Shown here piece after piece: positions 24,991-26,015 of a stretch of DNA of 64,000 nt. The stretch is from a virus, in IMG/VR virus record IMGVR_UViG_3300024252_000004, positions 186,001 to 250,000 of that record; one strand, 5' to 3'. The notes under the pieces are model-generated. The model had not been told where the DNA came from. It saw nothing but the letters and a program-made list of their open reading frames with translations, and did no database searches. A program made the position numbers and the translations under genes. Each line of letters begins with the position of its first letter. Position 1 is the first letter of the stretch.

Positions 24991-25126
24991 GGGGCTGTGG
25001 AGAAATTCGCAATTCAGTTTGAAGCCTCGCTCCTTACGTGGAGCAACCCACAGCAAACTCACAAGCATAGTAACTCGTTTACCTGAAAAGTAGAAGATTG
25101 TTGGTGCAAATCCAGCCGGCCCCACC
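24991..25126 (+). ncRNA. tRNA-like RNA 1 with inserted hairpin domain
   Basis: Acceptor GGGGCTG/CGGCCCC with ACC end and T arm GTTGG/CCAGC close the molecule. The centre holds a hairpin: AGTTTG/CAAACT (25016, 25054), an internal loop with CCTC on one side and AACCCACAG on the other, then GCTCC/GGAGC. ACAAGCATAG follows. The same hairpin domain and ACAAGCA occur in RNAs 3, 6 and 8. There is no usable anticodon arm. Confidence 0.6.
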
Positions 25127-25150
25127 GAACACATTTTAAATAAGTATTAA

Positions 25151-25221
25151 CGAAAGGCAGCACGGAGAAGGTGCGGCCCTTACTGGGACGGTCGTTGGTT
25201 AAAGTCCAACCCTTTCGACCA
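25151..25221 (+). ncRNA. tRNA-like RNA 2, no anticodon arm
   Basis: Perfect acceptor CGAAAGG/CCTTTCG, encoded ACCA, perfect T stem GTTGG/CCAAC and a GCAC/GTGC arm. The anticodon position is replaced by a short CCC-TTACT-GGG hairpin with a 5-nt loop, so it cannot decode. At 71 nt it is a tRNA mimic or a decayed tRNA. Confidence 0.6.
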
Positions 25222-25237
25222 TACTTAGAATTAGTTT

Positions 25238-25369
25238 ATCTGTTCATCATCACAAAGCTTACAAGCATAGATAGATCAATTGGTTAGATCATCGGACTAT
25301 TAATCCGAAGGCTGCGGGTTCAATCCCCGTTCCTTGCAACAAAAACCCAGCTTTGTACCTCGAACAGAT
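25238..25369 (+). ncRNA. tRNA-like RNA 3 enclosed in a long terminal stem (Y-RNA-like)
   Basis: ATCTGTTC/GAACAGAT and ACAAAGCT/AGCTTTGT form a two-part terminal helix around an internal loop (ATCATC / ACCTC). Inside lie TACAAGCATAG, a D arm GATC/GATC, an anticodon arm TCGGA/TCCGA with loop CTATTAA and a T arm. This layout, a long end stem plus tRNA-like module, is that of bacterial Y RNAs, and the Ro60-like gene lies 1.3 kb downstream. Confidence 0.6.
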
Positions 25370-25378
25370 ACCCCTTCT

Positions 25379-25451
25379 GCCCTTATAGTGTCAAGTTAAC
25401 ACGCCGGCCAAATAAACCGGAACTAGAGTATCGAATCTCTTGAGGGCACCA
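25379..25451 (+). tRNA. tRNA-like gene with aberrant anticodon and T loops
   Basis: Acceptor GCCCTTA/TGAGGGC, D arm GTGT/ACAC, anticodon stem CCGG/CCGG and encoded CCA give a 73-nt cloverleaf. The anticodon loop lacks U33 and the T loop has 8 nt (TATCGAAT). It may be inactive in translation. Confidence 0.5.
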
Positions 25452-25460
25452 CATAACATA

Positions 25461-25551
25461 TGTTTCTGAGCCTGGATGGCACCCCTAATAGGGGAAGAGA
25501 GGTTCGTTTCCTCTGCGGGACAAAAGCCGGTTCGAAGCCGGACAGAAACAT
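25461..25551 (+). ncRNA. tRNA-like RNA 5
   Basis: Eight-bp acceptor TGTTTCTG/CAGAAACA and a T-arm-like CCGG-TTCGAAG-CCGG. Two internal hairpins follow the 5' strand: CCCC-TAATA-GGGG and AGAGG-TTCGTTT-CCTCT. The second could be an anticodon arm reading CGT (Thr), but the extra hairpin before it is not found in tRNAs. No CCA is encoded. Confidence 0.45.
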
Positions 25552-25606
25552 CACTACATTTTATGCCGGATGATCCCTCGTTAAATCGCGGGGCCGGCTC
25601 CCATTT

Positions 25607-25729
25607 TCCCCGTCCAATCATTTCAATCTTACAAGCATAGCTCACTTGGTAGAGCATTAGAATTGAGATCTAAAGGTTGCAGGTTCGATCCCTGCTGCAA
25701 ACAAAACAGATTGATCCCTCGGACGGGGA
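25607..25729 (+). ncRNA. tRNA-like RNA 6 enclosed in a long terminal stem (Y-RNA-like)
   Basis: TCCCCGTCC/GGACGGGGA and TCAATCT/AGATTGA form the end helix with internal loop AATCATT / TCCCTC. Inside are TACAAGCATAG, a D arm GCTC/GAGC, an anticodon arm TTAGA/TCTAA with loop ATTGAGA, a T arm GCAGG/CCTGC and TGCAAACAAAAC. The layout is the same as RNA 3 with different paired bases, so the helices are conserved by covariation. Confidence 0.6.
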
Positions 25730-25776
25730 GCCCTTTCATCATGGTGTTCCATGATGTAAAATGAAGCGAACATCTT

Positions 25777-25853
25777 TGCGTAGGCTCAATAACCGTTTGA
25801 TGCATTGAATGTTGAAAAGTGCTCCAGTCACCAGATAATCATAGGGTGACGCA
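25777..25853 (+). ncRNA. Possible tRNA-like RNA 7
   Basis: TGCGT/ACGCA ends and a GTCACC/GGTGAC hairpin near the 3' side. D- and anticodon-like arms are not clear. Weakly supported, but it lies inside the RNA array. Confidence 0.3.
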
Positions 25854-25856
25854 CAT

Positions 25857-26015
25857 GCCGAAGTGGCGTAATTGGTAAACGCAACAGTATATGGAACTGT
25901 CTTTAAAAAGTCACCAGCTTTAAACCTCGACCCGTTAGAAATAATTGGTCAACACTTCAAGCTTACAAGCAGCCTTCGGGCAAAAATGTTGGTTCGAGTC
26001 CAACCTTCGGCACCA
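25857..26015 (+). ncRNA. Leu-tRNA-like RNA 8 with inserted hairpin domain
   Basis: Acceptor GCCGAAG/CTTCGGC, Leu-type D arm, stem ACAGT/ACTGT with loop ATATGGA, T arm GTTGG/CCAAC and CCA. Between the anticodon arm and the variable arm lies a hairpin of the shared domain: AGCTT/AAGCT, internal loop with ACCTC opposite AACACTTC, then GACC/GGTC, followed by TACAAGCA. The anticodon read from the loop would be ATG, which is not a Leu anticodon. Confidence 0.6.

What the first reader, a model, noticed from the sequence alone, without database searches (positions are those of the whole stretch)
25016..25971. A shared hairpin domain appears in direct and circularly permuted order
Seen: a helix / internal loop / helix with one strand ending CCTC-G and the other starting C-AAYCAY, followed by ACAAGCA, occurs four times. 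In RNAs at 24991 and 25857 the two strands are joined by a hairpin loop and the domain is inserted inside a tRNA-like body. In RNAs at 25238 and 25607 the strands come in reverse order and form the open ends of the molecule, with the tRNA-like body inside. The paired bases differ between copies while pairing is kept, which is covariation. Inference: the same protein-binding module has been circularly permuted relative to the tRNA body.
Basis: seen in the sequence. Interest (0 to 1): 0.85.

Follow-up and report, generated by a model that had tools for sequence, protein, structure and literature searches.

The report
Phage Y RNAs grafted onto tRNAs
Beside a gene for a Ro60-like RNA-binding ring protein, this huge phage carries an array of tRNA look-alikes that share one presumed protein-binding stem, attached at different corners of the tRNA and with the strand ends in different places, so one small RNA-protein system appears to present many tRNA disguises.

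Summary
Four copies of one helix / internal loop / helix / (U/C)ACAAGCA module lie at the stated places: two as closed hairpins inside tRNA-like RNAs, two as the open ends of RNAs with a tRNA inside. No other place in the window fits, and shuffled windows give 0.15 units each. With relatives from four more phages (24 curated units) both stems covary strongly (0 of 20,000 permutations reach the observed pairing).

The gene 0.7 kb downstream (26720-28600), unknown to Pfam TROVE, is a divergent Ro60 by predicted fold (top seven PDB matches are all Ro60/Rsr/TROVE) and by profile comparison. Relatives of this protein in phages, a Myxococcus and a Planctomycetota genome have the same RNA module nearby. 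These are therefore most likely Y RNAs (Ro60-bound tRNA mimics).

In this window the attachment point differs (acceptor end, D-loop, variable/T junction), so the RNAs are not circular permutants of each other. True circularly permuted tRNAs, some with encoded CCA, occur in relatives, and the textbook Y RNA YrlA is itself such a permutant. New are the mixture of topologies, intact anticodon arms and hybrids with tRNA. Binding and function are inferred, untested.

The parts
24991..25126 (+). Unit W1: tRNA-Phe(GAA)-like RNA with the module as a closed hairpin inside its D-loop
   Evidence: sequence reading plus fold; weak Rfam tRNA match 25064-25116; module strands placed
25016..25067 (+). W1 module hairpin: AGTTTG-AAGCCTC-GCTCC / GGAGC-AACCCACAG-CAAACT-CACAAGCA
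   Evidence: descriptor, stems
25237..25370 (+). Unit W2: module strands form the open ends; whole tRNA-like body (anticodon AUU, no encoded CCA) inside at 25265-25338
   Evidence: descriptor; Rfam tRNA 62.5 bits; model R2, a training member
25606..25730 (+). Unit W3: module strands form the open ends; tRNA-like body (anticodon UGA) inside at 25635-25698
   Evidence: descriptor; Rfam tRNA 50.1 bits; fold
25857..26016 (+). Unit W4: tRNA-like RNA (anticodon loop AUAUGGA, encoded ACCA end) with the module between variable arm and T arm
   Evidence: Rfam tRNA 47.7 bits over 25857-26012 with a large insertion
25916..25971 (+). W4 module hairpin: AGCTT-TAAACCTC-GACC / GGTC-AACACTTC-AAGCT-TACAAGCA
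   Evidence: descriptor, stems
26720..28600 (+). Divergent Ro60 homologue (helical repeat region plus C-terminal VWA domain), inferred protein partner of the RNAs
   Evidence: AlphaFold2 model pLDDT 74.9; Foldseek top seven hits all Ro60/Rsr/TROVE; hhalign to TROVE proteins 97.2%, E 3.5e-11, residues about 223-519; Pfam finds only VWA

Best explanation
The four RNAs are phage-encoded Y RNAs: tRNA mimics that carry a Ro60-binding stem (the shared module) and are partners of the divergent Ro60 encoded at 26720-28600. Shown by sequence: the shared covarying module, its fusion to tRNA-like bodies at three different points and in two strand orders, the neighbouring Ro60 homologue, and the same protein-RNA pairing in other phages and in two bacterial chromosomes. 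Inferred: the Ro60 ring holds the module stem while the tRNA-like body projects outward. Because the module is a self-contained stem, it can sit at any hinge of the tRNA fold, and the RNA ends can lie either at the tRNA acceptor (closed module hairpin) or at the module (open, longer outer helix). Most likely role, inferred and uncertain: the RNP offers tRNA-shaped decoys with varied anticodon loops that compete for host nucleases attacking tRNA, or that steer tRNA-handling enzymes to the ring, as proposed for YrlA.
For: Fold of the adjacent protein: Foldseek's seven best PDB matches, nearly full length, are all Ro60/Rsr/TROVE, including D. radiodurans Rsr 2nvo and a Thermus phage Ro60 9l5y; hhalign with Pfam-confirmed TROVE proteins 97.2%, E 3.5e-11, reaching well N-terminal of the VWA domain. 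Co-occurrence: modules near the homologous gene in L052, L054, L057 and phage Rctr197k L063. A model built only from phage permuted units also finds full-length matches upstream of the gene in Myxococcus L062 (8661-8793 and 7755-7881, 38.6 and 35.9 bits; gene at 8953) and Planctomycetota L061 (5190-5340, 26.7 bits; gene at 5725); by eye the Myxococcus RNAs keep ACACGC and ACTCG. Rfam YrlA hits the core of the Myxococcus RNA, 37.2 bits. Model and YrlA cross-match weakly in the T-arm / closed acceptor / D-arm core. Module without the protein: 2.06 Mb fetched by RNA half-motifs alone gave only the already known L054 contig. Open forms have a longer outer helix (8-12 bp) than closed ones (4-7 bp), P = 0.0002. 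Whole-tRNA units lack an encoded CCA and several anticodon loops are unusual, which suits mimics better than working tRNAs (sequence reading). Literature: YrlA suggested as competitive inhibitor of an anticodon nuclease (PMC7790460); abundant RNAs beside an Rsr homologue in a Listeria phage (PMC12282133).
Against: No binding, expression or phenotype data. Pfam TROVE and Rfam YrlA cut-offs are not reached by the window's own protein and RNAs. The module differs in sequence from the YrlA stem (AUGC / AAcUuG in the family consensus); only a resemblance of ACUCG to ACUUG at the same junction was noticed, not tested. No module was found around the two Archangium homologues nor in L058 or L056, whose contigs end near the gene. 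Encoded CCA ends in several direct and permuted units hint at real tRNA use.
Confidence: 0.72

Rival explanations
1. The module is an intron-like splicing element. Direct copies are tRNA introns and permuted copies are permuted tRNA genes; an endonuclease cuts at the module and a ligase joins the tRNA halves, giving ordinary or circular tRNAs.
For: Permuted units in relatives carry the 3' half first, often with encoded NCCA in the acceptor loop (L052 12950 and 777, L054 6454, L057 14254, G001 349156), as in permuted tRNA genes (PMC3978253). The window genome has two Rnl-type RNA ligase matches and L052's genome has two RtcB.
Against: The same module also encloses complete tRNAs (W2, W3 and five more), where splicing would only seal the acceptor, and mini units with no full tRNA body. 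The junction is not the 3-nt bulge / 4-bp helix / 3-nt bulge motif: internal loops are mostly longer and helix B is 3-7 bp. Ligase types differ between phages and none was found in the two partial contigs.
Confidence: 0.12
2. Direct and permuted units are working tRNAs that keep the stem. Permuted ones are cut in the acceptor loop by RNase P and 3' nucleases into two pieces held together by the long module helix, like two-piece tmRNA.
For: Encoded CCA in W4, L054 16490, L057 13779 and 13938, and in several permuted acceptor loops (sequence reading); open outer helices are long; ARAGORN calls tRNAs after rotation.
Against: Open whole-tRNA units lack CCA; some anticodon loops have a wrong size or no U33; other tRNAs of the same phage are already numerous (for L052's genome); L057 14609 has only GAAU in its acceptor loop.
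Confidence: 0.1
3. The module is only a stabilising or processing clamp of the tRNA array transcript, for instance against exonucleases, and the Ro60-like gene is its neighbour by chance.
For: The open outer helices are long and lie inside a tandem RNA array.
Against: Internal-loop and ACAAGCA bases are kept across phages and bacteria while stem bases change; the pairing with the Ro60-like gene recurs in distant genomes; closed hairpins inside tRNAs protect no end.
Confidence: 0.06

Closest known systems
YrlA and other bacterial Y RNAs (Rfam RF02553)
   Same: Encoded beside a Ro60 homologue; a two-helix stem with internal loops joins a tRNA-like core; the permuted units in relatives share YrlA's order T arm, closed acceptor hairpin, UA, D arm.
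   Different: Here the tRNA body usually has a complete anticodon arm, the stem joins at the acceptor, D-loop or variable/T junction, the RNA ends may lie at the tRNA acceptor, and some units encode CCA. The stem motif is (U/C)ACAAGCA with CUCG; Rfam cut-off not reached.
Ro60 / Rsr (TROVE proteins), including phage Ro-like proteins and Thermus phage Ro60 9l5y
   Same: Predicted overall fold and domain order; profile match to TROVE proteins.
   Different: Divergent branch missed by Pfam TROVE, with a beta-rich stretch near the N terminus, in a neighbourhood with JAB, small ubiquitin-like and ThiF/E1-like genes. More than 300 phage records carry a conventional Ro-like protein.
Circularly permuted tRNA genes of algae and one archaeon (PMC3978253)
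   Same: Relatives of the window's units have the 3' half before the 5' half, with an acceptor loop that may hold CCA.
   Different: No bulge-helix-bulge junction, no evidence of circular intermediates, and the same stem also occurs unpermuted.
Two-piece (permuted) tmRNA
   Same: Permuted tRNA-like domain with an acceptor loop that could be cut to free a CCA end (comparison from general knowledge).
   Different: No mRNA-like tag sequence; a shared stem takes its place.

Membership tests
bacterial Y RNA (YrlA) | encoded beside a Ro60 homologue | tested here: met
   26720-28600 by fold and profile
bacterial Y RNA (YrlA) | tRNA-like domain plus a stem interrupted by an internal loop | tested here: met
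bacterial Y RNA (YrlA) | Rfam RF02553 gathering score (69 bits) | tested here: not met
   best in the whole phage record 15.4 bits; permuted relatives about 22-25 bits, Myxococcus relative 37.2
bacterial Y RNA (YrlA) | permuted core order T arm, closed acceptor, D arm | tested here: not met
   not met by the four window units, whose tRNA bodies are in normal order; met by relatives
bacterial Y RNA (YrlA) | binds Ro60 | not testable with these tools
   needs experiment
Ro60 / TROVE protein | helical-repeat ring plus VWA fold | tested here: met
   Foldseek ranks 1-7; TM 0.33-0.48, so overall arrangement rather than close superposition
Ro60 / TROVE protein | profile similarity to TROVE proteins outside the VWA domain | tested here: met
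   hhalign 97.2%, E 3.5e-11, residues about 223-519; the N-terminal third is not covered
Ro60 / TROVE protein | Pfam TROVE (PF05731) over its cut-off | tested here: not met
circularly permuted tRNA gene | 3' half of the tRNA encoded before the 5' half | tested here: not met
   window units are in normal order; units in L052, L054, L057, G001 are permuted
circularly permuted tRNA gene | bulge-helix-bulge motif at the junction | tested here: not met
   loop and helix lengths read from 24 curated units; no dedicated BHB program was run
circularly permuted tRNA gene | circular RNA intermediate | not testable with these tools
   needs RNA sequencing

The most novel reading that the evidence does not exclude
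One huge-phage lineage keeps a library of Y RNA-tRNA hybrids in at least five topologies, and its permuted members are matured in the acceptor loop (by cutting or splicing) into functional CCA-ended tRNAs held by, or delivered to, a Ro60 ring. They would be the first permuted tRNA genes known in a virus, and a direct evolutionary bridge between tRNAs and Y RNAs.
Probability: 0.15. Interest if true: 0.92.

Novelty: new variant of a known kind. Interest (0 to 1): 0.72.

Why it matters
Y RNAs are described as a Ro60-binding stem plus a tRNA mimic, and how the mimic arose is open. Here one phage array holds the same stem grafted onto full tRNAs at several hinges, with true permutants in relatives, so possible steps between tRNA and Y RNA can be read in extant sequences and tested by binding and infection RNA sequencing. 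It also reveals a Ro60 branch that standard domain models miss, present in phages, myxobacteria and a planctomycete. If the decoy reading holds, it would be a phage answer to host enzymes that cut tRNA.

Tried and rejected
1) Known small ribozyme or other Rfam class: cmscan of 24600-26120 at E up to 5 gives only tRNA and chance matches. 2) Nucleotide search of phage records: only ordinary tRNA matches. 3) First structure prediction without alignment was useless, pLDDT 40. 4) VIA-align second look returned only VWA domain rows, so it neither supports nor excludes Ro60. 5) PDB sequence and profile searches see only the VWA domain at significant E. 7) Extra full-length matches of model R2 at G000 302440 and 305971 and W01 189286 turned out to be plain tRNAs without the module. 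8) The key Y RNA papers (Chen 2014, Sim 2018 and 2020) are not held; statements about them rest on citing papers and general knowledge. 9) Splicing-element reading kept as a rival, not adopted. 10) R-scape was not available; shuffles and slid-partner controls were used instead.

Full report
What is there. The window is positions 186001-250000 of a 395,127-base virus record. Between a radical SAM gene and a 626-codon gene lies a stretch of tRNA-like RNAs, about 24990-26016. A descriptor search confirms two closed hairpins (25016-25067, 25916-25971) and two open forms (25237-25370, 25606-25730), nothing else in 64 kb on either strand, with a chance expectation of 0.15 per window. Rfam calls tRNA at 25265-25338, 25635-25698 and, with a large insertion, 25857-26012.

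How the parts connect. In W2 (25238) and W3 (25607) a tRNA body in normal order is enclosed by the two module strands, joined at its acceptor end. In W4 (25857) the module hairpin sits between variable arm and T arm of a tRNA that ends in ACCA. In W1 (24991) it sits in the D-loop of a tRNA-Phe(GAA)-like body. So the module's strands occur in both orders, but the four RNAs differ in attachment point and are not simple circular permutants of each other.

Relatives. The downstream protein led to homologues at 52-57% identity in contigs L052, L054, L056, L057, L058 and phage Rctr197k (L063), and at about 38-40% in Archangium, a planctomycete and Myxococcus. Four of these phages have arrays of the same module. 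I curated 24 units: 7 with a whole tRNA inside open ends, 7 closed hairpins inside tRNAs, 8 permuted tRNAs, 2 mini units. Both stems covary: cognate pairing 97.5% and 97.4% against 48.9% and 62.5% for swapped partners, 0 of 20,000 permutations. The strands were chosen for complementarity, so the unaided RNAalifold results and their controls are the fairer test. Kept bases are (U/C)ACA(A/C)GC after helix B and CUC, mostly CUCG, at the other loop strand.

True permutants. In the permuted units of relatives the order is T arm, 3' acceptor strand, short loop, 5' acceptor strand, D arm, anticodon arm, variable region. ARAGORN sees no tRNA in them as written, but calls one in all six best-defined units once rotated at the acceptor loop, and only for pivots in that region; 12 of 3000 random rotated segments give a call. 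One further unit (L063 21497-21674) and two units broken in the D-loop needed extra trimming. Several acceptor loops hold NCCA. A covariance model of five permuted units found two units outside its training set elsewhere in L052's genome, 349156-349297 (74 bits) and 375738-375883 (37.5 bits).

The protein. Pfam sees only a VWA domain. With ten homologues AlphaFold2 gives pLDDT 74.9, pTM 0.65. Foldseek's first seven PDB matches are all Ro60/Rsr/TROVE over nearly the whole length. hhalign against proteins that do carry Pfam TROVE and Ro60-VWA gives 97.2%, E 3.5e-11, starting well before the VWA domain. I conclude that it is a divergent Ro60.

The link to Y RNAs. The Rfam YrlA consensus, displayed on canonical Ro60 loci, reads stem, loop, stem, T arm, closed acceptor hairpin, UA, D arm, stem strands. 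That is itself a circularly permuted tRNA without an anticodon arm, the topology of the phage permuted units less one arm. The phage model and YrlA cross-match weakly in that core. The phage model also finds full-length RNAs upstream of the Ro60 relative in Myxococcus (L062 8661-8793, 7755-7881) and the planctomycete (L061 5190-5340); the Myxococcus ones keep ACACGC and ACTCG, and Rfam YrlA hits one of them. Nothing was found in the two Archangium loci.

Mechanism. Shown: module, covariation, topologies, neighbour. Inferred: Ro60 binds the stem and the tRNA-like body is displayed; the ends of the RNA may lie at the acceptor or at the module because either opening leaves the folded object the same. 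Open outer helices are longer (8-12 bp against 4-7), as expected when no loop closes them. A decoy role against nucleases that cut tRNA is suggested by the varied anticodon loops and by the proposal made for YrlA (PMC7790460), but nothing here tests it.

Novelty. Y RNAs beside Ro60 in phages and bacteria are known, and the YrlA core is permuted in Rfam's own model. I found no report in the searched library of Y-type stems grafted onto complete tRNAs at several points, nor of permuted tRNAs in phages (the library lacks most subscription papers). I therefore rate it a new variant of a known kind.

Noticed in passing
25151-25221, 25378-25451, 25461-25550: Three further tRNA-like RNAs between the module units, with odd anticodon loops (apparent 5-, 9- and 5-nt loops); two end in CCA.
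   Followed up: partly
W2 25265-25338, W4 25857-26016; L052 12784-12913; L054 16754-16901; L057 14447-14596: Several module-bearing units have anticodons with A34 that would read Asn, His or Asp codons (AUU, AUG, AUC), unusual in bacteria; conceivably a way to evade or bait nucleases that recognise GU in those tRNAs.
   Followed up: no
30929-31939, 33665-34042, 34061-34345, 35980-36552: Conserved neighbours of the Ro60 relative: a protein of unknown family, a JAB protease, a small protein ending RPKTPFG(V/C) that looks ubiquitin-like, and a ThiF/E1-like protein. In L052, L057 and Rctr197k the RNA array follows the ThiF gene.
   Followed up: partly
22170-22630: Group I intron (72 bits) with an overlapping 185-aa ORF (21920-22477) that looks like an HNH homing endonuclease.
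   Followed up: no
26037-26081: Long near-perfect hairpin just after the RNA array, possibly its terminator.
   Followed up: no
28615-28688: tRNA-like gene right after the Ro60 gene for which ARAGORN reads only a two-base anticodon.
   Followed up: no
21159-21800; 30329-30727; 32277-33437: tRNA lysidine synthetase TilS, a weak 2H phosphoesterase match and an ATP-dependent ligase in the window, a possible RNA modification and repair set.
   Followed up: no
L052 12545-12627; L054 16085-16168: Mini units: module open ends enclosing only an anticodon-like hairpin.
   Followed up: partly
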